In this document: positions 34,829 to 49,019 of the stretch, piece after piece
Numbering within the stretch: the stretch's first letter is position 1
Layout: each line of letters begins with the position of its first letter
Source of the DNA: Mycobacterium basiliense
GTDB lineage: Bacteria; Actinomycetota; Actinomycetes; Mycobacteriales; Mycobacteriaceae
Assembly: GCF_900292015.1 (NCBI RefSeq)
Contig: NZ_LR130759.1
Span: forward strand, 372,001-436,000
Length of the DNA: 64,000 nt
Reading direction: 5' to 3'
Position numbers and translations under genes: made by a program
The notes under the pieces: generated by a model
The model's database searches: none
What the model was told of the DNA's origin: nothing
Seen by the model: only the letters and a program-made list of their open reading frames with translations

Positions 34829-36397
34829 TCAGGCAATGCCGTGCTGCCCCGGTTGGCCGAACAGCCGGCCACCGGCGCCACCGGTGCCGCCCGTGGCTGG
34901 GTTCGCGCCCACCCCGCCGTTGCCGCCATCGCCGCCATTGCCGGCTAACTTGGCGTTGCCGCCGTTGCCGCCGTCGCCGCCGTCCCCGCCGACGCTTGCT
35001 CCGCCAACGCCACCGGTGCCGCCGCTACCGATCAGTCCGGCGCTACCTCCGGGCCCACCCTTACCGGCGGCCATCGCAACGCCCAGTCCGCCGGTCCCGC
35101 CGTTGCCGCCGTCACCGATGAGCGCGGCGGCGGCTCCGCCGGCTCCGCCGGCACCTCCGAGATCAGAACCTGACCCGCCGCGCCCGCCGTCGCCGCCGCT
35201 GCCGACGATTCCGACGGCGTTGCCGCCCGCCCCGCCGGTGGCTCCGTTCACAGTGCCGTCCCCGCCGTCGCCCCCGTTGCCGCCGTTGCCGAACAGGCTG
35301 CCCGCGTTACCACCGCTCGCGCCGGCACCGCCGCTGCCGGTAGTGGATAACCCGGCGCCACCGTCCCCGCCGGCACCGCCGTTGCCGATCAGCAGGCCGG
35401 CTTGCCCCCCAACCCCGCCGGCACCTGCGGTGGTGATGCTGGCCCCTCCGCCCCCGCCGGTACCCCCGTTGCCCAAGTAGCCCGCTCCACCGATTCCGCC
35501 AGCCCCACCGGCGCCCCCGACGTGATCGCCGGCGCCGCCGTCGCCGCCGGGGCCGCCGCTGCCGAATAGGAATCCACCCATTCCACCCGCACCGCCTGTG
35601 CCGCCGCTGCCTCCTGACCCGCCGCCGCCACCCGGGCCGCCGGTTCCGCCGGTACCGAATATCAGGCCTCCGGGGCCGCCGGCTCCCCCGGCGCCGCCGC
35701 TACCGCCGAACCCGGGGCCGCCGGAGCCACCCATGCCGCCGCTGCCGAATAGCAGGCCGCCGGCGCCGCCAGCACCGCCGGCGGCCAAGCCTCCGCCGGC
35801 ACCGCCGGCTCCGCCGTTGCCGAGCAGCATGCCGCCGGCGCCGCCGGCCCCGCCGACGCCGCCATTCACGGGTGTCCCGGGGGCGCCGGCCCCGCCGGCC
35901 CCGCCATTGCCGATCAGGCCCGCCGCCCCGCCATTGCCCCCCTTCTGGCCGACGGCCGCGCCGGATCCGCCGGCGCCGCCGTTTCCGTACAAGATGCCGG
36001 CGGCCCCGCCGTCGGCCCCCGACCCTGGGGCGGCGTTGGTGCCATTGCCGAACAGCGGTCGTCCCAGCAACGCCTGGGTGGGCGCATTGATCGCGTTGAG
36101 CAGGGTGACCTCGACGTTGGCCGCCTCGGAGGTCGCGTACGCACCACCGCCGGCTCTCAATGCCTGCATGAATTGCTCGTGAAACGCTGCCGCGTGGGCG
36201 CCCAGCGACTGATAACCCTGCCCGTGTGAGCCGAAGAATGCGGCAATGGCCGCCGACACTTCATCGGTACCGGCGGCCAAAACCGCGGTGGTAGTGGGCG
36301 CCGCGGCCGCATTTGCCGCGACAATCGCCGATCCGATGCCGGCCAGACCGCTGGCCGCATCCGCCACGTACTCCGGAATCGCGAACACGAAGGACAT
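34829..36397 (-). CDS. PE_PGRS family protein
   Basis: A 522-residue protein. The PE domain (residues 1 to about 95) begins [20 protein letters not shown] and contains the typical second helix with [30 protein letters not shown] linker with [18 protein letters not shown], the conserved GRPL-like motif found after PE domains, leads into about 390 residues of Gly-Gly-x repeats (GNGGAGGxGG units). The C-terminus is short ([13 protein letters not shown]) with no extra domain. PE_PGRS proteins are exported by ESX systems and found in slow-growing mycobacteria. It occupies the place of Rv0229c. Confidence 0.92.
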
Positions 36398-36531
36398 GCG
36401 TTACCCCCGTCATCGAAAGGCAGAAACGCGCAGGCAGCGGCCAGGAATCCGCCGCGGATTCAGGGTATCGCTAGCGGATGGCGGCTTGGACGGGAAAACC
36501 AACTTTGTCACCGGATCTGGCCGGTCTCTGG

Positions 36532-37509
36532 CTAGTAGCCGCCCTGTCTCTCGAAGATTCGCCGCGGATTGTCGACGAGCATGGTGTGCACCTGTTCGTC
36601 GGTCACCCCGCGTTCTTTGAGCGCCGGGATCACATCGTTGTGGATGTGTAGGTAATGCCAGTTCGGTGTGGCCACCGGTACTAGCTCCTCGGGGAGCGCG
36701 TCGAAATAACAATTGGCGTCGTGGGAGAGCACCATCTTGTCGGCGTGTCCCCGTTCGCACATCGTCGCCACGATGTTGACTCGATCCTCGAACGGCAGGA
36801 TTAGGTCGATTCCGAACCGATCCATCCCGAGATAGGAGCCGGCCGCAATGAGTTCCTCGAGGTAGCCGACGTCGGTGCTGTCGCCGGAATGGCCGATGAT
36901 CACCCGGCTCAAGTCGACGCCCTCTTCGGCGAAGACGCGCTGCTGCTCGAGCCCACGGCGCAGCCCGGCGTGGGTGTGGGTGGAGATCGGCACCCCGGTG
37001 CGCTTGTGCGCCTGGGCGACCGCGCGCAGCACCCGTTCGACACCGGGGGTGAGGCCAGGCTCGTCGGTCGCGCACTTGAGGATGCCGGCCTTGACGCCGG
37101 TGTCGGCGATGCCCTGCTCGATATCGCGGACGAACATGTCGGTCATGATTTCCGGGCCTTCCAGCATGCAGCCGGGGCCTTGGTAGTGGAACCGGAACGG
37201 GACGTCGTTGTAGGTGTACAGGCCCGTCGCGACGACGATGTTCAGCTCGGTGGCCGCGGCGACCCGGGCAATGCGCGGGATATAGCGGCCCAGACCGATC
37301 ACCGTCAGGTCGACGATGGTGTGCACACCGCGCGATTTCAATTCGTTGAGCCGAGTGATGGCGTCCGCCACCCGCTTTTCCTCGTCACCCCACGCTTCGG
37401 GATAGTTCTGTGCGATCTCGGTGGTCATGATGAACACGTGCTCGTGCATGAGCGTGACGCCCAGATCGGCGGTGTCGATGGGTCCGCGAGCGGTATTTAG
37501 TTCTGACAC
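36532..37509 (-). CDS. php: Phosphotriesterase-like lactonase Php
   Basis: A 325-residue binuclear metal hydrolase of the phosphotriesterase family (Rv0230c). Metal ligands are HEHVFIMT near residue 22, the bridging lysine in AGILKCATDEPGL near residue 138, HTHAGLRRG, GHSGD, and Asp in LSHDANCYFD. Family members close to this one hydrolyse acyl-homoserine or other lactones, with promiscuous phosphotriesterase activity. The gene lies downstream of the biosynthetic operon on the same strand but is separated by a hairpin, so it probably has its own promoter. Confidence 0.93.
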   Translation of the reverse strand: MSELNTARGPIDTADLGVTLMHEHVFIMTTEIAQNYPEAWGDEEKRVADAITRLNELKSRGVHTIVDLTVIGLGRYIPRIARVAAATELNIVVATGLYTYNDVPFRFHYQGPGCMLEGPEIMTDMFVRDIEQGIADTGVKAGILKCATDEPGLTPGVERVLRAVAQAHKRTGVPISTHTHAGLRRGLEQQRVFAEEGVDLSRVIIGHSGDSTDVGYLEELIAAGSYLGMDRFGIDLILPFEDRVNIVATMCERGHADKMVLSHDANCYFDALPEELVPVATPNWHYLHIHNDVIPALKERGVTDEQVHTMLVDNPRRIFERQGGY

Positions 37510-37573
37510 ATAAGCGATGCTAGGTCGAGAACGGATGAGCCAACAGAGGAGTTTTGCTGGCTAGGCTCCGCGG

Positions 37574-37597
37574 GTTGACCCCGGAAACGGGATCAAC
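37574..37597 (-). terminator. Stem-loop at the end of the alpha-oxoamine synthase operon
   Basis: gttgaccccg (37574-37583), loop gaaa, and cgggatcaac (37588-37597) form a 10-bp stem with a single mismatch and a GNRA-type tetraloop. It overlaps the methyltransferase stop and precedes php on the transcribed strand. No U-tract follows, as is common for mycobacterial terminators. Confidence 0.6.
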
Positions 37598-38285
37598 GCA
37601 ACGACGGCACGACTTCGAGCCATTCCGTCGATTCGGGATCGGCATTTGTCAATTGCAGCCCGCTGCGGTGCAGTTCGCGTCGTAGCTTCGCGACCGTCAG
37701 CGCCTCCAGATGAAAGCACTGGCGCAATTCGGATCCGTCGGCGACCAATGCATATTCGCCGTCGACGACGCCTTTGAGCGAACTGTAGATGATCACGCGG
37801 GCCGTCACGTCGCCGATTGCCTTGCTCTCTGTCCAGCCCGAGGTCCGGGCGGCCCAATAGGGCGGCGGCTTCCACTGGATGATGGCCTTGCCCTCCGGCT
37901 TGAGGTGGTAGGCGATGGTGGCCAGCACCGCCCGCCGCAGATCCGTGCCCCGGTAGTGAATCAAGTTGGTCGCCAACAAGACCGCATCGAATCGCTCTGA
38001 CAGCCGCAGGTCCTCGATGCGGGCGCGCACGGGTCGGGCATGGCACACTTCGGCCAGCATGTCGTCGGAGTCGTCGACGGCGGTGACGTGGTGGCCGAGC
38101 GTGACCAGCGGATCGGCGATCCGGCCCGTGCCGGCGCCGAGTTCCAGCACGGAGCTCTGCGGTCGTAGCAAGGCGTGGATCTGCTCGGGTTCGCCCGTCG
38201 GCGGCATTCTGCGATAGAGCTCGATGAGGCTGCCGTCGGCCGTCCGCGCCGCGCCCGTGTCGGCTTGACAGTAACACTGCGCCAT
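37593..38285 (-). CDS. SAM-dependent methyltransferase of the biosynthetic operon
   Basis: A 230-residue class I methyltransferase, last gene of the five-gene operon. SVLELGAGTGRIADPLVTLG (about residues 48-67) is motif I, AVDDSDDMLAEV motif II, and DAVLLATNLIHYRG and HLKPEGKAIIQWKPPPYW follow. The C-terminus is unlike the small-molecule methyltransferases I know. The ATG 38285 follows AAAGGA, and the gap to the ATP-grasp stop is 15 bp. It is the likely tailoring (O- or N-methylation) enzyme of the pathway (inference). Confidence 0.85.
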   Translation of the reverse strand: MAQCYCQADTGAARTADGSLIELYRRMPPTGEPEQIHALLRPQSSVLELGAGTGRIADPLVTLGHHVTAVDDSDDMLAEVCHARPVRARIEDLRLSERFDAVLLATNLIHYRGTDLRRAVLATIAYHLKPEGKAIIQWKPPPYWAARTSGWTESKAIGDVTARVIIYSSLKGVVDGEYALVADGSELRQCFHLEALTVAKLRRELHRSGLQLTNADPESTEWLEVVPSLR

Positions 38286-38300
38286 GGCAATTCGTCCTTT

Positions 38301-39566
38301 CTAGGCCAGCTCGTAGAAGCCCACGCCATCGATGTAGCGCAGTGTCCAAAGATCACGTGCCACGACTTCGCCAACCTCATGTGAGAGCGTGACGAAGATG
38401 GGGTAGCTCAGGTCGTCGATGGTCAACGGCAGGTGTTGGCCGGGACTCACGCGCACCTGCATGTCGTGGAAGCTGTCCAGTTCTTTGATGGCTTCCAGGC
38501 TCTGGTAGGAGACCAGCGTGCCGCTACGCGGGGCGACCATCACGCTGCGCGCGACATGTTGGCGGAGCCGGTACGGCCGTCGGCTGCGCGTGGTAAATCG
38601 CTCGGGTCGCACGTAGGCGTCCACCGTCCAGTCGATCTGCGACCGACCGGTGCCCAACCGTGCGCCCTCAGGCAGGCAGGCGCCGGCAATTCGCGCTCCC
38701 ACCTCGATCAGGCGCGGACCATCGGGTGTCATCTTGATCTCGGCGTGGGCCGCGCCGTGTCGGATACCGAGGGCATCGAGGACGTCGAACGCGTAGGCGA
38801 CCAGCTCGTCCTGTACGGTGCCCGTCGCTGGCAGCAGCCGCCAGGCGACCAGCAGGTCAGGAACACCATTTGCGTTGATGCGATGTGTCTCCCAGATGTC
38901 ACAGACGTGGTGCCCGCCGTCGCGGCTGACGGTGTCGACGGTGTACTCGGCACCTACCAGGCACTCCTGCGCCACGACGCCGTCATTCGATTGCGAGAGT
39001 ATGTTGTTGCGTCCGTTGAGCCGCCGGAAGGCCGCTATGGCATCGTCGGCGCTACGACACCAGGTGACGCCATCGCTGGCGGCGCTGCGCAATGGTTTGA
39101 GGACGATGGTGCTGCCAATCTCCGTGTGCCAGTCGCGGAGCTGATCTTCGTCCGCCACCACGATCTGTCGGGCGCCCGACAGGCCGAGCTGTTTGATCCG
39201 CTCGATCATCAGGTACTTGTTGCGCCGGGCGGCGCTCAGTGCGGTGCCGTTGGTCGGTGCGCCGGTGATCGGATGGAACGCCTCGCTTAGGGCATCGGCC
39301 AGTTCCACTCCCGGTTCGGTCCCGGCGACCACTGCGACGGGACGGAACGGGGTCAGGGTGGCCATTGTCTTGGCTAGGTCACCGCAGTGCGCGATGTCGA
39401 CCTGGTAGGGGTATCGGTCCGGTTGACCACGTAGACCTGGTGGCACCTCTGGGGTGCTCTGAACACGTAGTGGGGTGTACCCCGCGTTTCGGAAGCCTTG
39501 GGCCAGTTCAGTTCCGACGGCGCCGTAGCTGTCAACCAAAACGACGTGTCGTGCGCTGTCGTGCAC
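38301..39566 (-). CDS. ATP-grasp ligase of the biosynthetic operon
   Basis: A 421-residue ATP-grasp protein of the carboxylate-amine ligase type related to biotin carboxylase-like peptide ligases. The N-terminal domain is VVLVDSYGAVGTELAQGFRN. ATP-binding segments are IVLKPLRSAASDGVTWCRS, VAQECLVGAEYTVDTVSRDG and AHAEIKMTPDGPRLIEVGAR, which carries the two Mg-binding acidic residues (Glu in AEIK and in IEVGAR). Members activate a carboxylate as acyl-phosphate and join it to an amine, as in dipeptide ligases. Start GTG 39566 is supported by GAGGAG. It lies 14 bp downstream of the MaoC-like gene. Confidence 0.87.
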   Translation of the reverse strand: MHDSARHVVLVDSYGAVGTELAQGFRNAGYTPLRVQSTPEVPPGLRGQPDRYPYQVDIAHCGDLAKTMATLTPFRPVAVVAGTEPGVELADALSEAFHPITGAPTNGTALSAARRNKYLMIERIKQLGLSGARQIVVADEDQLRDWHTEIGSTIVLKPLRSAASDGVTWCRSADDAIAAFRRLNGRNNILSQSNDGVVAQECLVGAEYTVDTVSRDGGHHVCDIWETHRINANGVPDLLVAWRLLPATGTVQDELVAYAFDVLDALGIRHGAAHAEIKMTPDGPRLIEVGARIAGACLPEGARLGTGRSQIDWTVDAYVRPERFTTRSRRPYRLRQHVARSVMVAPRSGTLVSYQSLEAIKELDSFHDMQVRVSPGQHLPLTIDDLSYPIFVTLSHEVGEVVARDLWTLRYIDGVGFYELA

Positions 39567-39580
39567 GTCGCTCTCCTCGT

Positions 39581-40117
39581 TCAGTAGGCCGCCAGGTCTT
39601 CGAGATCATGCTCGCGGGTTGGTAGCAGGAATGACCGCTGACACGTCAGGAACACTGTGCCGTCGGCCTTGATCCCGCGGGTAGCGCAACTGACTATCCC
39701 TTGGTTCGGCCGGGATTCGGACAGGCGCTTGTCCAGATATTCGGTCTCTGCGTAGATGGTGTCCCCGATGAACACCGGGGCGACAAGGCGGATGTTGTCC
39801 CAGCCGAGGTTGGCCAGGCCTTTGGCGCTGGTGCTTTGGACACTCATGCCGGAGACGATCGACAACGTGACCAGGCTGGAAACCAAAGGACGCTTCCACT
39901 CGGTGTTTTCGCAGTAGGCGCTGTCAATGTGCAACGGGTGCAGGTTAAGTGCCAACAGCGACATCCAAGTGTTGTCGGCTTCGCTGAGTGTGCGGCCTGG
40001 CCGGTGCTCGATGATTGCCCCGACCTCAATGTCGTCGAACAGGAGACCACGTGACTCCCGCCACCGTCGATCGCCAACCTTTTTGTACGCACGCACGTGA
40101 TCCATGGTCAATCTCAT
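39581..40117 (-). CDS. MaoC-like hydratase of the biosynthetic operon
   Basis: A 178-residue single hotdog protein. LLFDDIEVGAIIEHRPGRTLSEADNTW begins the fold. ALNLHPLHIDSAYCEN corresponds to the hydratase signature around NP-LH-D, but the Asp of the normal GD pair is not present. The remainder, with DNIRLVAPVFIGDTIYAETEYLDKR, matches the mesaconyl-CoA hydratase-like branch. Its ATG overlaps the stop of the lyase gene (ATGA), so the two are translated together. This CitE-MaoC pairing also occurs in M. tuberculosis (Rv2498c-Rv2499c), where it serves beta-hydroxyacyl-CoA chemistry. Confidence 0.83.
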   Translation of the reverse strand: MRLTMDHVRAYKKVGDRRWRESRGLLFDDIEVGAIIEHRPGRTLSEADNTWMSLLALNLHPLHIDSAYCENTEWKRPLVSSLVTLSIVSGMSVQSTSAKGLANLGWDNIRLVAPVFIGDTIYAETEYLDKRLSESRPNQGIVSCATRGIKADGTVFLTCQRSFLLPTREHDLEDLAAY

Positions 40118-40971
40118 CCAAGCGCTTTCACACGCCGCAGCAGGCGCTGCGCCGCGGCAACCATGGGCGGACCAAGCATTTGTCCGTCCAGGACGCTGAT
40201 CTGCCCGGCCCTGCTGTGCACGAGGTCGATGACGCGGCGCGCATGCTCCACCTCGGCAGGCAATGGCGTAAAGGTGTCATTGATCACCGCCACCTGCCGG
40301 GGGTGAATCGCCGCCTTGCCTTGAAAGCCAAGTTCGCGTGATCGGTTCACGTCTATCTTGAGCGCGAGTTCGGCACCGAGATCGAACGTAGGAGAGTCGA
40401 TTGCCGGGATGCCGGCCGAGGCGGCCGCCGCGACGATACGTGAGCGGGCGAAAAGTAGTGGCTCCCAGTCCATTGCAATGCCCAGCTCGGAGGTGAAGTC
40501 GGCGGCTCCGAACACCAGCGCACGGACCCGGGGCGTGGCGGTGGCGATCTCTTCGACGGCTGAGAGGCCGGCCGGGGTTTCGATCGTGGCCAGAAATGGC
40601 ATGTTCCCGGCCTGATCGCCGAGCATGTCCTCGAGGATCCGCAGATCATGCGCGCAGTTGACTTTCGGCACCAGCAATGCGTCGGGTTGTATTGCGCCGC
40701 AGGCGAGGGCGAGGATGTCGCGTAGACCGTCGGTGGTGCGCAGGCTATTGATCCTCAGGGCGCGAACGCAGCCGGTGCGCGGTCCTTCGAACATTGAAGA
40801 TGCGCGGTTGCGCGCTTCGTCGCGCCGGGCGGCGGGCACCGAGTCCTCCAGATCCAGGGTGCATACGTCGGCGCCGGATCGCAGGGCTGAACGATACTGG
40901 CGCGGATTGAGCGCACTGGTCATCAGCATGGTGCGAAACACCCACGGCTGGTTAAGCATTGAGTGATTCAC
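40114..40971 (-). CDS. HpcH/HpaI (CitE-like) aldolase/lyase of the biosynthetic operon
   Basis: About 285 residues. Start is GTG 40971, one base after the preceding stop; ATG 40959 is also possible. TLDLEDSVPAARRDEARNRA near the N-terminus, LRINSLRT, ALLVPKVNCAHDL, FLATIETPAGLSAVEE (metal-binding Glu) and LVFGAADFTSELGIA (metal-binding Asp) are the complete TIM-barrel active site of the family. GFQGKAAIHPRQV closes it. These enzymes form or cleave beta-hydroxyacyl-CoA esters, for example malyl-CoA, methylmalyl-CoA or citramalyl-CoA from glyoxylate or pyruvate plus acyl-CoA. Coupled with the MaoC-like protein it would deliver an unsaturated CoA ester (inference). Confidence 0.87.
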   Translation of the reverse strand: MNHSMLNQPWVFRTMLMTSALNPRQYRSALRSGADVCTLDLEDSVPAARRDEARNRASSMFEGPRTGCVRALRINSLRTTDGLRDILALACGAIQPDALLVPKVNCAHDLRILEDMLGDQAGNMPFLATIETPAGLSAVEEIATATPRVRALVFGAADFTSELGIAMDWEPLLFARSRIVAAAASAGIPAIDSPTFDLGAELALKIDVNRSRELGFQGKAAIHPRQVAVINDTFTPLPAEVEHARRVIDLVHSRAGQISVLDGQMLGPPMVAAAQRLLRRVKALG

Positions 40972-40972
40972 G

Positions 40973-42304
40973 CTAAACCGCAACCAAGTCTTGTGATTCC
41001 GGCGTCGCCAAGTCGGTGACGGTCTGGCAGAAGCGGCGGATATCGTCGGGATCGTTGTCGGCCCGCAGCATGATTCGCAGTCCAGCCTGGCCTTTGGCGG
41101 TAACTGGGAAGAAGACCGCCGAGGTGTAGAAACCGCGTTCGAGGATTTGACTGGACAGAGCGATCGCCTTGGCTTCCGCGCCGATCGCGATCAGTCGAAT
41201 CGCGGTGTTCAGACCGGCTTGAGGCGTGCTGATCAGGCTGTCGAAGAGAGCCGCGTTGTCGCGCAGTTGCCGCTGTCGCTGACCCAGCTCAGGTGAATTG
41301 TGTACTCGCAACGATCCCAGGCAACCGCCGATGGTCGGTGCGTTCTGCGGCTGGGACCACGCTAGCGGGCCGCCGAAGCGCATCAGCACGTCATGGTGCT
41401 TTTCGGGACCCAACATGATGACCCCGCCGGTGGCGCCGAAAGCCTTGCCGAGCGAGGCGACGATGATGGTCAGGGGGTTGAGTTCCTCCGGCATCAGGGA
41501 TCGCACAATGCCCTCGCCATGGGTGCCGTACATCGATAGCGAGTGGGAGTCGTCGAAAAACAGGAACAGCCCGTAGCGGTCCTGCAACTCCAGGAGTTCT
41601 TTCACCGGTGCGACCCCGCCCAGCGAGTAGGCGCCGTCCGCGACGTAGGCCACCCGCTGGTGCTTCTTGCACATGTCTTCTAGGTAGTTGAGGTCGTTGT
41701 GCGGGCAGGTCAGGACGGGCGCTTCGTCGGCGCAGATGGGCTTGATGTAGTTGAGCGAGAAGTGGCTGAGCTTGTCGAACACCATGACGCGCGGCTTGCC
41801 GTCATCGGTCAGGTGTCCGGAAGCGATCAGCGGCAAGACGGCGGCGCTGGCCACCGATGCGGAAATCGCGGCGACGCAGCGGGCTCCAAACAAGGCCGAG
41901 AGTCCGGATTCGAGCTCGTCGAGGATGGAGAACCGGATACGCAAACGCGAAACCGGCAATGCGAATGTTTGTTCCGACTCGGTTGCCGAATGCACCCCTT
42001 GCAGGACCCAAGGATGGGAATGAAGTCCCAGGTAGGAGCACGAAACCAGGTTGATGAAGCGGTGACCGTCGCGCAGCCGCTCCAGCCGGTCGTTTCCGAT
42101 ATAGCGGACGCTGTTGTCCAACAGGTGGTTGTCCGCCGCGGCCTGCCACGTCGGATTGCCGACGTCGACGGCCTTGGCGTTGTTGCGAAACCGGTGCGTC
42201 TCGGACTGCACCTTGAATCCCGTCAAAAGGATCTCCTTAAGAGTGCGTTCGAGCGACGCAGAAGGGAATGGCGTTTTACCGAGGCCCGATCGCCTCGGTT
42301 GCAT
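40973..42304 (-). CDS. PLP-dependent alpha-oxoamine synthase
   Basis: A 443-residue fold-type I aminotransferase-family enzyme related to BioF, HemA and CqsA, first gene of the operon. Residues 90-110 (FINLVSCSYLGLHSHPWVLQG) match the N-terminus of these synthases. DDSHSLSMYGTHGEG holds the Asp-x-His pair contacting the cofactor. VASLGKAFGATGGVI has the PLP-binding lysine. The family condenses an amino acid with an acyl-CoA, losing CO2, to give an alpha-aminoketone. ATG 42304 is used; the frame is open to 42454, but that part is AT-rich and non-conserved in appearance. The upstream Shine-Dalgarno AGGAGGAGG (42338-42346) is oddly far, about 33 bases from the ATG. Confidence 0.85.
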   Translation of the reverse strand: MQPRRSGLGKTPFPSASLERTLKEILLTGFKVQSETHRFRNNAKAVDVGNPTWQAAADNHLLDNSVRYIGNDRLERLRDGHRFINLVSCSYLGLHSHPWVLQGVHSATESEQTFALPVSRLRIRFSILDELESGLSALFGARCVAAISASVASAAVLPLIASGHLTDDGKPRVMVFDKLSHFSLNYIKPICADEAPVLTCPHNDLNYLEDMCKKHQRVAYVADGAYSLGGVAPVKELLELQDRYGLFLFFDDSHSLSMYGTHGEGIVRSLMPEELNPLTIIVASLGKAFGATGGVIMLGPEKHHDVLMRFGGPLAWSQPQNAPTIGGCLGSLRVHNSPELGQRQRQLRDNAALFDSLISTPQAGLNTAIRLIAIGAEAKAIALSSQILERGFYTSAVFFPVTAKGQAGLRIMLRADNDPDDIRRFCQTVTDLATPESQDLVAV

Positions 42305-42361
42305 AGCTTGAACGGTATCTAGAGCCGAATGCGTTGACCTCCTCCTATCGGTTCGGCAAAC

Positions 42362-42456
42362 GATGAATTTTCGTTCATCCGATTGGGGGACATCGTCGTC
42401 TCGTGCCGGTATTTCAAAATTGCCCGTCCATCGATCGGTGGATGTGCAATTCATCC
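42362..42456. promoter_or_regulatory. Two related inverted repeats in the divergent synthase/transporter spacer
   Basis: GATGAA (42362-42367) and TTCATC (42374-42379) are perfect arms. GGATG (42440-42444) and CATCC (42452-42456) are a second, similar pair. Both share GATG...CATC and lie in the AT-rich spacer 42305-42549, which holds no convincing gene. They could be sites for one regulator acting on both directions; no regulator gene is encoded inside the cluster. Confidence 0.5.
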
Positions 42457-42549
42457 GTGTTATTGGCCACGTGGTCGACAGACATCACCGCGTCTTGGCG
42501 GCACCGTTATTCCCATGTACATCCCGACTAGCGAAGCGTGATCGACTAA

Positions 42550-43494
42550 ATGCCCTGGTTGGCATTGATCACTGGCAACGGCTTGCACGCGGTGATCACC
42601 GCGTTGTTGGGACTGTCGATGATCACCGCCGCCGACAGTCTGCGGATTTTGGCGATCGCCGCGGCCGCGTCTGCGCTGCTCGGAGCCGCGACGGCCCGGC
42701 GAAACCACTCCGTTTCGCCGACGTGCCCGTCCACCGTCCGAAACCTTGGCTGGTTGAATTTGTGGACCGCGGTAACGTTCACCGCCTTCTTCCTAGGTGT
42801 GGCGGTCTACGACGCGGCAGTTGTCTTCACGCTGGGAGCTTCGTTTGCTCCCGTTGCGGTGACCGCGTGGTCGAGCATTCGGGCCCAACACGGACACGAT
42901 TCGAGCCCCCCAAGCAGCGCTCAATGGCGGGCGGTGGTGCTCTTGGCGGCGCTGGGCACCTCGCTGGTGGCCACGATGGCCTGGTCGAATTCCCGCGGCA
43001 TCGTCCCACTGCTGGTGGCCGGTGTGCTGGGCGTCATCGACGGCATCGCCGCGGGCGGGGTGGCCGTCGTTTCCCGCAGCTTGGGCCGCAGCGGGGTCGG
43101 TGTGTGGCAGGTAATGGCTCACCGCTATTACGCCACCGTGGTGGTGGCCGCCGTCGCATTGCTGGTGCTAGTCCCGTCCGGATTGCTAGCCGCGCCCAAG
43201 ATGTCGCTGAGCATGTCGATCGGAGCGGCGTTCGCCTCGTTGGTGGTGCCCTTCTTTTTGATGCAGTACGCCATTCAGCGGTTGTCGCCGGTGTTGGTGA
43301 CGGCGGCACTGGCATTGATACCGGTGATCGCGCTGCTCGTTGAGTTGGCCGCTGGCAGACCGGTGAGTGGGGCTTCGTTGTTGCTCGGCTTGCTCATCGT
43401 GCCGGCGAGTCTGGCAATCTTTGCCGCCGGACAGAAAAGCCAAGTACCGAAAGACGTGGTGCTGGCCGGCGCGCAGCACGCGGAGGCGTGTTGA
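42550..43494 (+). CDS. DMT/EamA-type transporter of the biosynthetic cluster
   Basis: A 314-residue membrane protein with nine to ten hydrophobic helices, divergent from the synthase operon. It consists of two related halves, as in EamA exporters. The first half includes WTAVTFTAFFLGVAVYDAAVVFTLGASFAPVAV, and the second begins near VVLLAALGTSLVATMAW, with QYAIQRLSPVLVTAALALIPVIALLVEL typical of the family's last helices. Members export amino acids and small metabolites. Location next to the operon suggests it exports the product; the clean divergent arrangement fits co-regulation. ATG 42550 has no strong ribosome-binding site. Confidence 0.8.
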   Translation: MPWLALITGNGLHAVITALLGLSMITAADSLRILAIAAAASALLGAATARRNHSVSPTCPSTVRNLGWLNLWTAVTFTAFFLGVAVYDAAVVFTLGASFAPVAVTAWSSIRAQHGHDSSPPSSAQWRAVVLLAALGTSLVATMAWSNSRGIVPLLVAGVLGVIDGIAAGGVAVVSRSLGRSGVGVWQVMAHRYYATVVVAAVALLVLVPSGLLAAPKMSLSMSIGAAFASLVVPFFLMQYAIQRLSPVLVTAALALIPVIALLVELAAGRPVSGASLLLGLLIVPASLAIFAAGQKSQVPKDVVLAGAQHAEAC

Positions 43495-43575
43495 CGGACC
43501 GCCGCCGTCGCTGCGAGGTCCGTGGCGTACCGTCTAGGCTCGTCCGATTCCGAAGTCAAGTCATGGGAGCATCTG

Positions 43576-45300
43576 ATGCTGCTCAACCCGAACCGCCTGC
43601 AACGTAAATATCCAGACGCGCGCTCGGCGGAGATCATGCAGGCCACGGTGGACTTCTTCGAGTCCCGGGGTAAGGCAAAGCTCAAGCAGGATGACCACGA
43701 ACGCGCGTGGTACTCCGACTTTCTTGCCCACATCGCTCAGAATCGCATCTTTGCCTCCCTGCTGACCCCGGCCGAGTACGGCGCGGACCCGGCGTTGGCT
43801 TGCCGCTGGGACACCTACCGGATCAGCGAGTTCGCCGAGATCATCGGCTTTTATGGGCTGAGCTACTGGTACCCCTTCCAGGTGACGGCCCTGGGCCTGG
43901 GCCCGATCTGGATGAGCGACAACGAGGACGCCAAGCGCAAGGCCGCCGCCCAGCTCGAGCAGGGCGAGGTGTTCGCCTTCGGCCTGTCCGAACAGGCCCA
44001 CGGCGCCGACGTGTACCAGACAGACATGATCCTGACGCCCTCCAAAGACGTTGGGCACGGCTGGACGGCCGAGGGCGAAAAGTACTACATCGGCAACGCC
44101 AACGTCGCTCGCATGGTGTCGACGTTCGGCAAGATCGTCGACTCGTCCAAGGAACCGGAATACGTCTTCTTCGCCGCCGACTCCCAGCACGACCGGTATG
44201 AGCTGAAGAAGAATGTGGTCAACTCGCAGAACTACGTGGCGAATTACGCGCTGCACGACTACCCGGTCACCGAAGCCGACCTGCTGCACCGCGGGATCGG
44301 CGCTTTCCACGCCGCGCTGAACACCGTCAACGTTTGCAAGTACAACCTGGGCTGGGGCGCGGTCGGGATGTGCACCCACGCCTTGTACGAGGCCATCACG
44401 CACGCGGCCAACCGTCACCTGTATGGCACCGTGGTCACCGACTTCAGCCACGTGCGTCGGCTGCTTACCGACGCCTACACGCGGCTGGTCGCGATGCGGT
44501 TGGTGGCTACCCGAGCCAGCGACTACATGCGCAGCGCGTCGGCCGACGACCGGCGCTACCTGCTGTACAGCCCGCTGACCAAAGCCAAGGTGACCAGCGA
44601 GGGCGAGCGCGTTATTACCGCGTTGTTCGATGTCATCGCCGCCAAGGGCGTCGAGAAGGACACCTTCTTCGAAACCGTGGCCCGCGAGATCGGCATGCTG
44701 CCCCGGCTGGAGGGCACCGTCCACATCAATATCGGGTTGCTGGCCAAGTTCATGCCCAACTTCCTGTTCGCCCCCGACGCCGCGCTGCCGCAGGTTGGTC
44801 GCCGCGACGACGCGGCCGACGACACCTTCCTGTTCAACCAGGGACCCACCGGCGGGCTGGGCAAGGTGCGGTTCCACGACTGGCGGGCGCCCTTTGACAG
44901 CTACGGCCACCTGCCCAATGTGGCGTTGCTGCGCGAGCAGATCGACGTGCTGGCCGAGATGTTGGCCAGCGCCACCCCGGATGCGACGCAACAAAAGGAC
45001 ATCGACTTTGCCTTCGGTGTGGGGCAGATCTTCGCGTTGGTGCCCTACGCGCAGCTCATCCTCGAGGAAGCTCCGCTGTCTGGGGTGGACGAAGCGTTGA
45101 TTGATGAGATCTTCGGCCTGCTGATCCGGGACTTCAACAGCTACGCCGTCGAGCTCCACGACAAGTCCGCCACGACGGACGCACAGGCCCGTTTCGCGAT
45201 GCGGATGATCCGCCGCCCCGCGCATGACGCGTCCCGCTATGAGCAGGTCTGGAAGGAGCACGTGCTGCCGCTCAACGGCGCCTATCAAATGCGCCCGTGA
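43576..45300 (+). CDS. fadE4: Acyl-CoA dehydrogenase FadE4
   Basis: A large acyl-CoA dehydrogenase-family flavoprotein of 574 residues, close to the 568 of M. tuberculosis FadE4. Features include FASLLTPAEYGADPALACRWDTYRI, FAFGLSEQAHGADVYQTDMILTP (flavin/substrate region), YHIGNANVARMVSTFGK-like beta-domain sequence, and a helical C-terminus. Start chosen at ATG 43576 (MLLNPNRLQRKYPD) because GGGAGC lies five bases upstream and the preceding residues look non-coding. Downstream is the TetR gene Rv0232, which may regulate it. Confidence 0.9.
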   Translation: MLLNPNRLQRKYPDARSAEIMQATVDFFESRGKAKLKQDDHERAWYSDFLAHIAQNRIFASLLTPAEYGADPALACRWDTYRISEFAEIIGFYGLSYWYPFQVTALGLGPIWMSDNEDAKRKAAAQLEQGEVFAFGLSEQAHGADVYQTDMILTPSKDVGHGWTAEGEKYYIGNANVARMVSTFGKIVDSSKEPEYVFFAADSQHDRYELKKNVVNSQNYVANYALHDYPVTEADLLHRGIGAFHAALNTVNVCKYNLGWGAVGMCTHALYEAITHAANRHLYGTVVTDFSHVRRLLTDAYTRLVAMRLVATRASDYMRSASADDRRYLLYSPLTKAKVTSEGERVITALFDVIAAKGVEKDTFFETVAREIGMLPRLEGTVHINIGLLAKFMPNFLFAPDAALPQVGRRDDAADDTFLFNQGPTGGLGKVRFHDWRAPFDSYGHLPNVALLREQIDVLAEMLASATPDATQQKDIDFAFGVGQIFALVPYAQLILEEAPLSGVDEALIDEIFGLLIRDFNSYAVELHDKSATTDAQARFAMRMIRRPAHDASRYEQVWKEHVLPLNGAYQMRP

Positions 45301-45425
45301 GGCAGCTAGCCTTGGCCGCTCGTCGAGCTTGCCCGTTAGGGCGGTGAATTGCTGTTCGACCACGACCCTGGCGGCAATTTCGTCGCTGCGGTGCCATCCT
45401 TGTCTGTGGGATAGCTCACACTAAA

Positions 45426-45440
45426 ATGACCAGTGGTCAT
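45426..45440 (+). promoter_or_regulatory. Palindromic operator overlapping the Rv0232-like -10 region
   Basis: ATGACC (45426-45431) and GGTCAT (45435-45440) are perfect arms around agt, a classical TetR-type operator. A -10-like TAAAAT (45422-45427) touches its left arm, so binding would block transcription of the regulator gene that starts 18 bases downstream. Confidence 0.7.
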
Positions 45441-45457
45441 CGACGCAAGGAGGCGCC

Positions 45458-46129
45458 ATGCCGACGGTGACTTGGGCTCGGGCCGATCCGGCACGTCGAG
45501 CAGCCATTGTGGAAGCCGCGGAAGCCGAGTTCGGCGCCCATGGCTTCTCCCAGGGCAGCCTGAATGTCATTGCCCGGCGCGCGCGGGTCGCCAAAGGCAG
45601 CCTCTTCCAGTACTTCGCGGACAAACGCGACCTGTATTCGTACATAGCCGACATCGCTAGCCAGCGAGTGCGCTCCTATATGGAGGATCTCATCCGTGAG
45701 TTGGATCCGAGCCGGCCATTCTTCGAATTTCTCACCGACCTACTCGACGGCTGGGTGGCCTATTTCGCCGAGCATCCGCGGGATCGAGCCCTGCACGCCG
45801 CGGCGACCCTGGAGGTCGACACCGACGCCCGCATCAGCGTGCGAAGCGTCATTCATCGCCACTACCTAGAGGTGCTGCGGCCGTTGGTGCGCGACGCGTT
45901 GACCCGCGAAGACCTGCGCCCGGATGCCGACACCGATGCGCTGCTGTCGCTGCTGTTGATGATTTTTCCGCACCTGGCGCTGGCTCCGTACATGCGCGGA
46001 TTGGACCCCATTCTCGGGCTTGACGAACCCACACCCGAACAGCCGGCGCTGGCCGTGCGTCGGCTGGTCGCAGTGCTGGCGGCGGCGTTCTCGCCGAACC
46101 TCAACATGGATATTCGTGGGGTCAGATGA
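45458..46129 (+). CDS. TetR-family transcriptional regulator (Rv0232-like)
   Basis: A 223-residue repressor. RRAAIVEAAEAEFGAHGFSQGS and NVIARRARVAKGSLFQYFADKRDLYSYI (about residues 9-60) form the DNA-binding domain. The C-terminal domain is helical with DPILGLDEPTPEQPALA near the end. ATG 45458 follows AAGGAGG. The palindrome just upstream suggests autorepression. Neighbouring fadE4 ends 157 bp upstream on the same strand and could be a target, but the site is downstream of it. Confidence 0.9.
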   Translation: MPTVTWARADPARRAAIVEAAEAEFGAHGFSQGSLNVIARRARVAKGSLFQYFADKRDLYSYIADIASQRVRSYMEDLIRELDPSRPFFEFLTDLLDGWVAYFAEHPRDRALHAAATLEVDTDARISVRSVIHRHYLEVLRPLVRDALTREDLRPDADTDALLSLLLMIFPHLALAPYMRGLDPILGLDEPTPEQPALAVRRLVAVLAAAFSPNLNMDIRGVR

Positions 46130-46350: not shown

Positions 46351-46899
46351 TCATGCCCACGTGGAAACAAACCACGCCTGAGCGCCGGTATCGGGCTCGT
46401 ATCTTCGTCGTGGCAGTGTGCCGATATCCGCCCCGTAGACGTGTATGCCCACGCAAGGGGCATCGGTACCACAGTTCACGGAATGGACGTCATCATCGGT
46501 CGTGCAACACACCGCGACTTCTCCGGGATGCCAGCTCTGCGGGTCCAGTTGAACGAGCGGTTCGTTTGGTCGAGATGGCTTCCTGTACCGAGTTTCATGT
46601 TCGACGCCCGAGTAGATACCGACGACGCCCCAAGTTTCGTGTCCGTGGACCGGTGTACGTTGCCCGACGTTCCACACTGCAACCGCGATGCAGAACGAAC
46701 CGTCCGGAGCTACGAACAGTGGACGCAACACGTAGTGATCGGGGTCGGCTGCTTGTTGCTGGTCGGTGAGCTGAAGGCCGTCAGCGAGGAGCCGTCGCAG
46801 ATCTGCGGCAACGTGCGCAGTCAAGGAGTCTTCCGGAAGCTGCTGCGCCACTCGAAGTTTGGTGTCTGCAATGAACTGGTCAAGCCCGTATCGTGCCAA
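46351..46899 (-). CDS. Cupin thiol dioxygenase-like protein (cysteine/3-mercaptopropionate dioxygenase family)
   Basis: A 182-residue cupin from TTG 46899 (ARYGLDQFIADTK), the only in-frame start after an upstream stop. The iron-binding motif TPVHGHETWGVVGIYSG (about residues 83-99) supplies two histidines, and DDDVHSVNCG the third. VCVGIHVYGADI-like C-terminal strand sequence is also typical. The spacing H-x-H then His about 50 residues later is that of thiol dioxygenases, which add O2 to a thiol to give a sulfinate. The Cys of the Cys-Tyr cofactor of animal enzymes is absent, as is usual in bacterial members. YVLRPLF places an Arg near the substrate-binding position, but cysteine versus 3-mercaptopropionate cannot be decided. 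Divergent from the IclR gene. Confidence 0.82.
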   Translation of the reverse strand: MARYGLDQFIADTKLRVAQQLPEDSLTAHVAADLRRLLADGLQLTDQQQAADPDHYVLRPLFVAPDGSFCIAVAVWNVGQRTPVHGHETWGVVGIYSGVEHETRYRKPSRPNEPLVQLDPQSWHPGEVAVCCTTDDDVHSVNCGTDAPCVGIHVYGADIGTLPRRRYEPDTGAQAWFVSTWA

Positions 46900-47870: not shown

Positions 47871-49019
47871 GTGTTGAAACCGCTTGATGGAGTTCGGGTA
47901 ATCGAATTCTGCACAGTTGCTTCTGGCCCGTTTTGTGGGATGCTGCTTGCCGACTTCGGAGCTGACGTGATCAAAGTCGAGATGCCGGGGACGGGCGACT
48001 CAATGCGGGCATGGCCTCCGCTGACATGTGGCTATAGCGAGAATTTTGCATCGCTGAACCGAAACAAGCGTTCGATAGAGCTGAATCTCAAAGACCCCGA
48101 CGATAATGCCGTGGCGCGCAAGTTGCTCTCCAAAGCTGCTGTGGTGCTGGAAAATTCGCGTCCTGGCGTGATGGAGAAACTTGGACTGGACTACAGCAGC
48201 GTTCGGCGTGTCAACCCTCGCGTTGTGTATGCGTCTATCTCCGCCTACGGACAGTCTGGACCGAGATCGCGCGAGGGCGGCTTTGATCTCACACTTCAGG
48301 CGGCAAGCGGCATCATGAGTGTGACGGGTGAACCTGGCCGCGGGCCGGTCAAGTGCGGCGTACCGCTATCGGACTTTGCAACCGGCTTGTACGCGGCGTT
48401 TAGCATCAGCGCCGCACTTCGTGAGGCCGCGACGAGCGGCCACGGTACCCATATCGATGTCTCGATGTTTGGCTCGTCTCTGGCGATCGCCGCACTGCAA
48501 ACGAGCGAGTACTTCGGGCGTGGCATCGATCCGACCGCAATAGGGTCCAAGCATCCGCGCAACGCCCCTTACCAGACATTCTGTGCGTCCGACGGACCGT
48601 TTGCCATCGCGGCGGGTAATGACAGTTTGTGGCAGGCGATGTGCGCTGTCCTCGGGCGAGAAGACCTACGTGATAGCCCCAGATTTGCCTCCACTGCTTT
48701 GCGCGCTCAAAATCAGCAGCAGCTCAGCGGGATCCTTGACGAGATATTCAGTTCACGCAGAGTGGACGAGCTTCTTGAGGTGTTCCGTAAAGCGGGTATT
48801 CCGTGTGCCCCTATTAATACCTACTCCCAGGCGTTATCGGACCCTCAAGTCGAGCACATGGGTTGGGTTCAGAATCTGCATCTGCCCACTGGGGTGGTAA
48901 CGAAGACCTTCGGGTCGCCTATTCGCTTCTGCGGCGAAAGGCCCGCGATATATCGTCAACCCCCACTGCTGGGTGAGCACAACAGTGAGATCCGCGCCGA
49001 GATCGAACGCGTCCTCTAG
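47871..49019 (+). CDS. Class III CoA-transferase (CaiB/BaiF)
   Basis: A full-length 382-residue CoA-transferase. LDGVRVIEFCTVASGPFCGMLLADFGADVIKVE begins the fold, and LNRNKRSIELNLKDP and ISAYGQSGPRSREGGFDLTLQAASG follow. The nucleophilic aspartate is in EGGFDLT (about residue 140). The C-terminal lobe with PLLGEHNSEI is intact. These enzymes move CoA between carboxylates, or activate an acid using an acyl-CoA donor. GTG 47871 follows AAGGAG. The stop overlaps the next start by one base. Members of this family activate 3-sulfinopropionate in other bacteria (from memory), which fits the nearby thiol dioxygenase. Confidence 0.92.
   Translation: MLKPLDGVRVIEFCTVASGPFCGMLLADFGADVIKVEMPGTGDSMRAWPPLTCGYSENFASLNRNKRSIELNLKDPDDNAVARKLLSKAAVVLENSRPGVMEKLGLDYSSVRRVNPRVVYASISAYGQSGPRSREGGFDLTLQAASGIMSVTGEPGRGPVKCGVPLSDFATGLYAAFSISAALREAATSGHGTHIDVSMFGSSLAIAALQTSEYFGRGIDPTAIGSKHPRNAPYQTFCASDGPFAIAAGNDSLWQAMCAVLGREDLRDSPRFASTALRAQNQQQLSGILDEIFSSRRVDELLEVFRKAGIPCAPINTYSQALSDPQVEHMGWVQNLHLPTGVVTKTFGSPIRFCGERPAIYRQPPLLGEHNSEIRAEIERVL

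What the first reader, a model, noticed from the sequence alone, without database searches (positions are those of the whole stretch)
37574..43494. Compact alpha-oxoamine synthase biosynthetic cluster between php and fadE4
Five same-strand genes, with ATGA overlaps or gaps of 15 bases or less, encode a PLP alpha-oxoamine synthase, a CitE-like lyase, a MaoC-like hydratase, an ATP-grasp ligase and a methyltransferase. A DMT exporter is divergent. All key residues are present in the synthase (SLGKAFG, DDSHS), the lyase (metal Glu and Asp) and the ligase. A coherent route can be drawn. CitE joins glyoxylate or pyruvate with an acyl-CoA, and MaoC dehydrates the product to an unsaturated CoA ester. 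The synthase condenses that with an amino acid to an aminoketone, ATP-grasp adds an amino acid, and the product is methylated and exported. I know no described mycobacterial metabolite with this gene set.
Basis: partly seen in the sequence, partly recalled or inferred. Interest (0 to 1): 0.9.

Follow-up and report, generated by a model that had tools for sequence, protein, structure and literature searches.

The report
Ketomemicin-like pseudopeptide cluster in mycobacteria
Some mycobacteria carry a five-gene set that probably makes an unknown modified dipeptide by the same chemistry as the ketomemicins of other actinomycetes, but apparently without the usual reduction step and with a different joining enzyme and cap.

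Summary
The genes are as described: AOS, CitE-like lyase, MaoC-like hydratase, ATP-grasp ligase and methyltransferase on the minus strand, with a divergent membrane protein, between php and fadE4. Correction: the synthase most likely starts at TTG 42226 (417 aa).

The set is real and under purifying selection. All five genes recur in the same order in 10 of 10 other genomes examined that carry the synthase, 9 with php and fadE4 alongside. Seven of 12 relatives without it have php and fadE4 adjacent.

The route has a precedent. AOS, CitE and MaoC match the ktmB, ktmA and ktmC counterparts of a ketomemicin-type Streptomyces cluster (48, 40, 60% identity; closest own-genome AOS and CitE paralogues 29 and 31%). 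CitE and MaoC trees put the mycobacteria beside one Holophagales cluster; the AOS tree agrees weakly. The ligase is of another ATP-grasp family than ktmD; ktmE and ktmF are missing. Zinc-type reductases (31) or cyclodeaminase-family genes (12) flank 42 of 46 non-mycobacterial triads, and 0 of 10 mycobacterial ones.

Best reading: a new variant of the ketomethylene-pseudopeptide pathway, probably N-methyl-capped. Boldest open reading: an unreduced, thiol-reactive 4-oxo-2-enoic acid. No product is known.

The parts
40973..42226 (-). alpha-oxoamine synthase (KtmB-like), 417 aa, TTG start at 42226; NCBIfam subfamily PRK07505
40114..40983 (-). CitE/HpcH-type CoA lyase or aldolase (KtmA-like); start TTG 40983, GTG 40971 or ATG 40959
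39581..40117 (-). MaoC-like (de)hydratase (KtmC-like) with the NxxxxH form of the active-site motif, found in 59 of 59 sequences aligned
38301..39566 (-). ATP-grasp L-amino-acid-ligase-like enzyme, PRK07206 subfamily (not the PGM1/KtmD type)
37593..38285 (-). [not shown]
42550..43494 (+). divergent EamA/DMT-like membrane protein, ten hydrophobic segments, possible exporter
   Evidence: present in 8 of 10 other mycobacterial loci
42361..42392 (-). conserved element upstream of the synthase (relatives: TGTCCCCCGATC-N-GGGGA...ATTCA, a palindromic core; the right arm is imperfect in the window)
36532..37509 (-). php, left flank of the insertion site (not part of the pathway)
43522..45300 (+). fadE4-like acyl-CoA dehydrogenase, right flank (not part of the pathway)

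Best explanation
The operon makes a small N-capped pseudopeptide by ketomemicin-type chemistry. The CitE-like enzyme adds the methyl carbon of acetyl-CoA (or malonyl-CoA) to an alpha-keto acid R-CO-COOH, giving a malyl-CoA-type intermediate. The MaoC-like enzyme removes water, giving HOOC-C(R)=CH-CO-SCoA or its isomer. The AOS condenses this thioester with an amino acid, losing CO2 and CoA, to give an amino-ketone that mimics a dipeptide with the amide replaced by a keto-carbon bridge. The ATP-grasp ligase joins a further amino acid through an amide. The methyltransferase caps the product, most likely at an amine (the place taken in ketomemicins by an amidino group), and the EamA-like protein exports it. 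Shown here: gene content, homology to ktmA, ktmB and ktmC, conservation of the set, purifying selection, absence of ktmD-, ktmE- and ktmF-type genes, an N-methyltransferase-like fold of the MT model. Inferred: all substrates, the order of ligation and methylation, the site of methylation, and export.
For: AOS, CitE and MaoC occur in one locus in 61 of the 91 loci examined, 46 of them non-mycobacterial. L096 (Streptomyces sp. I05A-00742) holds CitE-AOS-MaoC-PGM1 ligase-(putative amidinotransferase)-zinc dehydrogenase, the ktmA-F order (gene set from PMC11943689); the genome note reports a ketomemicin-analogue cluster in this strain, though not which scaffold. Identity to L096: AOS 48%, CitE 40%, MaoC 60%; own-genome AOS and CitE paralogues at most 29% and 31% (blastp; 32% and 33%). 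L096's own ktmA-like protein also has RipC as best family (216.5 bits), like the window CitE. CitE and MaoC trees agree (97 and 99). dN/dS 0.05-0.33 for the six genes. The nearest AOS in the PDB is Alb29 of the albogrisin pathway, shown to make aminoketones from L-Glu and acyl-CoAs. The ligase matches L-amino-acid ligases. The MT model is closest to N-methyltransferases.
Against: No product is known. The ligase is not KtmD-like (blastp E 2.7) and ktmE/ktmF are missing. The mycobacterial triad is not nearest to the actinobacterial ktm clade, and the AOS placement is weak: with the triad copy of the Holophagales AOS added, myco plus Holophagales gets 31, myco plus Holophagales plus one Rhodobacter-labelled row 84. 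CitE best matches RipC and MaoC best matches RipB, both below cut-off, so a catabolic ancestry is possible; a CaiB-type CoA-transferase-like ORF lies at 47871-49019, though no relative of it is in the stretches held for the 10 other mycobacterial loci. M. genavense has in-frame stops in AOS and ligase, so the pathway is dispensable there. A shared fold does not prove N-methylation.
Confidence: 0.66

Rival explanations
1. An aminoketone pathway that is not ketomemicin-like: the synthase makes a simple aminoketone (as Alb29 does from L-Glu), perhaps cyclising or acting as a signal, and CitE/MaoC only supply a short acyl-CoA.
For: AOS is closest in the PDB to Alb29 (E 5.9e-83), whose reported reactions use L-Glu only (seven reactions). 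AOS occurs without CitE/MaoC in the fetched stretch at some loci, for example Corallococcus L077 and Pseudomonas L107.
Against: In mycobacteria the AOS comes with CitE and MaoC in 10 of 10 other genomes. The Holophagales locus nearest by CitE and MaoC (L056) is a triad plus zinc reductase beside an NRPS condensation-domain gene.
Confidence: 0.14
2. Itaconate- or citramalate-type catabolism (RipB/RipC-like) with the synthase and ligase as bystanders.
For: Best NCBIfam hits are RipC (230.8 bits) and RipB (208.1 bits). A CaiB-type CoA-transferase-like ORF lies 2.6 kb beyond fadE4 (47871-49019).
Against: Both scores are far below the curated cut-offs (375 and 340), and L096's ktmA-like protein scores the same way (216.5). 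The CoA-transferase-like ORF has no relative in the stretches held for the 10 other mycobacterial loci, whereas AOS and ligase are in all 10.
Confidence: 0.06
3. Same pathway as the best explanation, with the double bond reduced by an enzyme encoded elsewhere, so that the product is an ordinary saturated ketomethylene pseudopeptide.
For: The genome holds 24 KtmF-related stretches at E 1e-10 or better, best 45% over 224 residues, several of them inside frames of over 2,000 codons, so a reductase may be borrowed. This is a sub-case of the best explanation, not an addition to it.
Against: None lies in the window or within 4 kb of the triad in the stretches held for the mycobacterial loci (0 of 15 rows, 10 genomes), including the copy at another genomic site (L042).
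Confidence: 0.42
4. A decaying remnant without function.
For: Present in only 10 of 396 genus genomes including this one; the M. genavense copy carries stops.
Against: No stop inside AOS or ligase in 9 of those 10 genomes; dN/dS 0.05-0.33.
Confidence: 0.03

Closest known systems
Ketomemicin biosynthesis (ktmA-F; Streptomyces, Micromonospora, Salinispora)
   Same: Aldolase, AOS and dehydratase homologous and adjacent; a stand-alone ATP-grasp ligase; no NRPS; a gene that could cap the product (amidinotransferase there, methyltransferase here)
   Different: Gene order AOS-CitE-MaoC instead of A-B-C; ligase of the PRK07206/L-amino-acid-ligase type instead of PGM1 type; methyltransferase instead of amidinotransferase; no dehydrogenase ktmF; a divergent membrane protein
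AOS-CitE-MaoC-zinc reductase sets beside NRPS genes in Acidobacteriota and Myxococcota (L056, L054, L057)
   Same: Same gene order; L056 is the closest triad in this sample: MaoC 77%, CitE 55%, AOS 53% and 63% in two pieces (58% for a second, stand-alone copy)
   Different: They have the reductase and NRPS neighbours; the mycobacteria have a ligase and a methyltransferase
Alb29, albogrisin alpha-oxoamine synthase (PDB 8xha)
   Same: Closest AOS with a solved structure; makes aminoketones
   Different: Reported to use L-Glu only; its cluster was not examined here
DdaF (dapdiamide A synthase) and other L-amino-acid ligases (30vh, 3vot, BacD)
   Same: Family of the ligase; amide formation between amino acids (established knowledge)
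   Different: 194 bits against a DdaF cut-off of 840: a relative, not DdaF
Itaconate-degradation enzymes RipB and RipC
   Same: Best family matches of MaoC and CitE
   Different: Below the curated cut-offs; different genomic company
Small-molecule and peptide N-methyltransferases (CypM, TylM1, DesVI, GSMT)

Membership tests
Ketomemicin (ktm) cluster | Homologous aldolase, AOS and dehydratase encoded together | tested here: met
Ketomemicin (ktm) cluster | PGM1-type ATP-grasp ligase KtmD | tested here: not met
   window ligase against the L096 ligase E 2.7; Pfam PreAtp-grasp/PGM1_C there against ATP-grasp_4 here; best hit in the window E 0.16
Ketomemicin (ktm) cluster | Amidinotransferase KtmE | tested here: not met
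   the L096 gene in the ktmE position has no tblastn hit up to E 1 in the 64 kb window; that gene itself has no Pfam or NCBIfam match, so its label rests on position and on my reading
Ketomemicin (ktm) cluster | Dehydrogenase KtmF | tested here: not met
   best hit in the window E 0.068; 0 of 15 mycobacterial rows within 4 kb
Ketomemicin (ktm) cluster | Makes a ketomethylene pseudopeptide | not testable with these tools
   needs chemistry
alpha-oxoamine synthases | PLP lysine and cofactor Asp/His conserved | tested here: met
   K261 and H228 in 88 of 88 rows, D225 in 87 of 88
Dapdiamide synthase DdaF | Score above curated cut-off | tested here: not met
   194.1 against 840
RipB/RipC itaconate degradation | Scores above curated cut-offs | tested here: not met
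   208.1 against 340 and 230.8 against 375
EamA/DMT transporters | Pfam EamA gathering score | tested here: not met
   18.2 against 28.2 bits, E 0.0033; ten hydrophobic segments would fit the fold; no structure model obtained
N-methyltransferases of amines or peptide N-termini | Methylates an amine | tested here: inconclusive
   closest folds are N-methyltransferases and weak sequence matches agree, but fold does not show the reaction

The most novel reading that the evidence does not exclude
The mycobacterial clusters do without the enoyl reductase for a reason: the synthase takes the unsaturated acyl-CoA directly and the exported product is an N-methylated dipeptide mimic ending in a 4-oxo-2-enoic (ketovinyl) acid. 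This would be a built-in thiol-reactive warhead, turning the ketomethylene scaffold of ketomemicins into a covalent cysteine-targeting one: a new class of mycobacterial natural product.
Probability: 0.25. Interest if true: 0.78.

Novelty: new variant of a known kind. Interest (0 to 1): 0.56.

Why it matters
I found no report of a ketomethylene-type pseudopeptide pathway in Mycobacterium (open-library searches only, mostly listings). [quoted passage not shown] A five-gene, NRPS-free route in species such as M. gastri, M. szulgai and M. lacus is small enough to rebuild in a laboratory host. Its missing reductase makes a sharp, testable prediction about the product, and the triad survey (46 non-mycobacterial loci, in five phyla by the labels) suggests that the chemistry is much wider than the named ktm clusters.

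Tried and rejected
Dropped or leading nowhere: a plasmid match for the cluster (none in near mode); an RNA element (no Rfam match at gathering scores, 36400-45500); a paper linking AOS clusters to Mycobacterium (one search listed 20 of 4,144, none read); a sibling cluster from the second ligase copies (a different gene set); the MT paralogues as a guide to its substrate (no triad or ligase near). A model of the membrane protein was never taken. The primary ketomemicin papers (Kawata 2017; Ogasawara 2016) are not held: what I say of KtmA, KtmC and KtmF chemistry beyond the gene names is recalled.

Results against my reading: the shuffle test for the upstream element gave no support (in L039 the best arm match was 7 of 8, and 9 of 200 shuffles reached 8 of 8), so that element rests on conservation alone; the exact left-arm motif is in 7 of 9 regions and varied in L038 and L045; in the window the best inverted repeat is another one, nearer the synthase. 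In the AOS tree the L056 row is the stand-alone copy, not the triad copy, which had been left out as a split match; with it added (quick tree) the AOS support for a Holophagales sister group fell to 31 (84 with the Rhodobacter-labelled L070). That lowers the claim that all three genes moved together; CitE and MaoC still agree.

Limits of the counts: one search kept the best 80 of 125 confirmed relatives from two peptide patterns, so the non-mycobacterial set is a sample. The genus survey drew 396 genomes from a larger group. Five mycobacterial loci (L048, L049, L051, L052, L053) have the contig lengths of L038, L040, L043, L045 and L039 and were treated as duplicates and left out of the trees. 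Rows under 330 aa (AOS) or 70% of length (CitE, MaoC) were left out of the trees, among them the M. genavense AOS. The 12 cyclodeaminase-family neighbours may not be reductases of this pathway; counting only zinc-type reductases gives 31 of 46. Of the four triads with neither, L075 has a KtmF-like gene beyond the 4-kb limit and L099 ends 207 bases after the triad. In some loci the three hits are spread over more than 5 kb (L070, L083). One mycobacterial contig (L039) ends 3.9 kb after the triad. Positions show only matches above 45% identity.
Full report
WHAT IS THERE. On the minus strand lie an alpha-oxoamine synthase (AOS, 40973-42226), a CitE/HpcH-type lyase (40114-40983), a MaoC-like hydratase (39581-40117), an ATP-grasp ligase (38301-39566) and a methyltransferase (37593-38285). 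A membrane protein (42550-43494, plus strand) is divergent. Flanks are php and a fadE4-like gene. Pfam: Aminotran_1_2, HpcH_HpaI, MC_hydratase/MaoC_dehydratas, ATP-grasp_4, Methyltransf_25; the membrane protein has no match at E 0.001 and a sub-threshold EamA match (E 0.0033). The AOS start is better placed at TTG 42226 than at ATG 42454.

IS IT MORE THAN CHANCE. The AOS was sought in 396 genomes of the genus, drawn from a larger group; 10 including this one match at E 1e-80 or better. In 9 of the 9 others, and in a further named contig (Mycobacterium sp. UM_CSW, L050), the five genes are present in the same order: 10 of 10. The membrane protein is in 8 of 10; php and fadE4 are in 9 of 10, the exception being G264 (locus L042), which has neither within its 20 kb. 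Genes further out in the window (cysteine-dioxygenase-like, IclR, CaiB-like) have no relative in those 10 stretches. Of 12 relatives whose php region I fetched, 7 have php and fadE4 side by side with nothing between and 5 have php without fadE4 in the fetched stretch. Pairwise dN/dS (NG86) against 7 to 9 relatives is 0.05-0.33 for the six genes, against 0.05-0.19 for php and fadE4. M. genavense has an in-frame stop in AOS and one in the ligase. In a class-wide draw, 4 of 394 genomes matched at E 1e-45, two of them this genome and G029.

WHAT IT RESEMBLES. PMC11943689 (abstract, sections 3, 5 and 7 and term passages read) lists ktmA aldolase, ktmB PLP-dependent C-acyltransferase, ktmC dehydratase, ktmD ATP-grasp ligase, ktmE amidinotransferase and ktmF dehydrogenase for ketomemicins. 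[quoted passage not shown] One scan of the genome-contig collection with an AOS alignment gave 80 loci. Streptomyces sp. I05A-00742 (L096) has CitE-AOS-MaoC-PGM1 ligase-a gene in the ktmE place-zinc dehydrogenase. Its genome note (one passage read) reports a ketomemicin-analogue cluster without naming the scaffold, so that L096 is that cluster is my inference; the ktmE-place gene has no Pfam or NCBIfam match and is called amidinotransferase by position and by my reading. Window against L096: AOS 48%, CitE 40%, MaoC 60% identity; own-genome paralogues compared reach 29% (AOS) and 31% (CitE) (MaoC paralogues were not compared). The window ligase does not match the L096 ligase (E 2.7), and ktmE and ktmF have no counterpart in the 64 kb.

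HISTORY OF THE TRIAD. In quick trees of CitE and MaoC (59 rows each) the 11 mycobacterial rows form a clade whose sister is the Holophagales locus L056 (supports 97 and 99). In the AOS tree (87 rows) the mycobacteria form one clade (100/100) that falls with two Holophagales sequences and one Rhodobacter-labelled sequence (90/92); with the triad copy of L056 added, a quick tree gives 84 for that group and 31 without the Rhodobacter-labelled row. Identities to L056: MaoC 77%, CitE 55%, AOS 53% and 63% in two pieces. L056 has AOS-CitE-MaoC-zinc reductase (Pfam ADH_zinc_N) and, behind it, an NRPS condensation-domain gene. So CitE and MaoC travelled together, and AOS probably with them, from outside the ktm clade of Streptomyces.

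THE MISSING REDUCTASE. I required AOS, CitE and MaoC hits in one locus (61 of 91 loci: 15 mycobacterial rows = 10 distinct genomes, and 46 others) and looked within 4 kb for zinc-type reductases (KtmF and four relatives) or ornithine-cyclodeaminase-family proteins. Among the 46: 31 with the first, 12 with the second, one of them with both, 42 with either; 4 with neither (L075, L083, L086, L099). Among the mycobacterial rows: 0 of 15. The own genome has 24 KtmF-related stretches elsewhere, so a borrowed reductase cannot be excluded, and the cyclodeaminase-family genes may have another role.

MECHANISM. Keto acid plus acetyl- or malonyl-CoA (CitE), dehydration (MaoC), Claisen-type condensation with an amino acid (AOS; precedents KtmB, DynZ and Alb29, from passages of PMC11906848, PMC10230504 and PMC9239090), amide ligation, methylation, export. 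Only the homology is shown; each substrate is open. Without the reductase the enoyl function would survive as a 4-oxo-2-enoic acid, a Michael acceptor; that is the boldest reading, at 0.25.

NOVELTY. A new variant of a known kind: same core enzymes and, by inference, the same chemistry as ketomemicins, with a replaced ligase, a replaced cap, no reductase, and a new host group. I found no paper on a mycobacterial member in the open library (listings only, apart from the passages named), which misses most subscription journals. PMC11943689 speaks of 28 non-Salinispora Actinomycetota with homologues of all six genes; the window would not qualify by that test, as it lacks three.

Noticed in passing
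   Followed up: partly
window 42392-42361 (-) and the same place in L037-L039 and L041-L045: Conserved element TGTCCCCCGATC-N-GGGGA followed by ATTCA upstream of the synthase (exact left motif in 7 of 9 regions, including the other genomic site L042), and a GTCTGTCG box nearer the membrane protein in 7 of 9. The shuffle test of its palindromy gave no support. Regulator unknown.
   Followed up: partly
window about 42299-42278 (-): Inverted repeat ACCGAGG-N8-CCTCGGT between the conserved element and the synthase start, reported as the best repeat only for the window among nine regions.
   Followed up: no
L045 / L052 (M. genavense): AOS and ligase each carry one in-frame stop; CitE, MaoC, MT and membrane protein show none in the aligned parts.
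   Followed up: no
L054, L057, L056: AOS-CitE-MaoC-zinc reductase directly beside NRPS genes in myxobacteria and Holophagales: ketomethylene units may be built into NRPS products.
   Followed up: partly
L077, L079-L081, L092, L094, L125 (Corallococcus): AOS with a ligase of the window's family about 3.3 kb downstream but no CitE or MaoC hit in the fetched stretch; in L077 also a 2OG-Fe(II) oxygenase and a cyclodeaminase-family gene.
   Followed up: no
L116, L120, L123 (Chromobacterium): AOS of this family without CitE/MaoC in the fetched stretch, in a genus known for arphamenines (PMC11943689); possible arphamenine lead, untested.
   Followed up: no
L062: A record named Comamonas sp. KCTC 72670 falls inside the Myxococcus/Pyxidicoccus clade of the AOS tree: probably a mislabelled or contaminated record, or a recent transfer.
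   Followed up: no
G000:C1:321479-322123 (about 50 kb before the window): A 53% identical paralogue of the methyltransferase in the same genome, with no triad near it.
   Followed up: partly
window 34829-36397 (-), 46354-46899 (-) and 47871-49019 (+): A PE_PGRS-like glycine-rich ORF next to php (by eye), a cysteine-dioxygenase-like protein (E 0.0008, below cut-off) and a CaiB-type CoA-transferase-like ORF (by eye) beyond fadE4; the last two have no relative in the 10 other mycobacterial stretches.
   Followed up: partly
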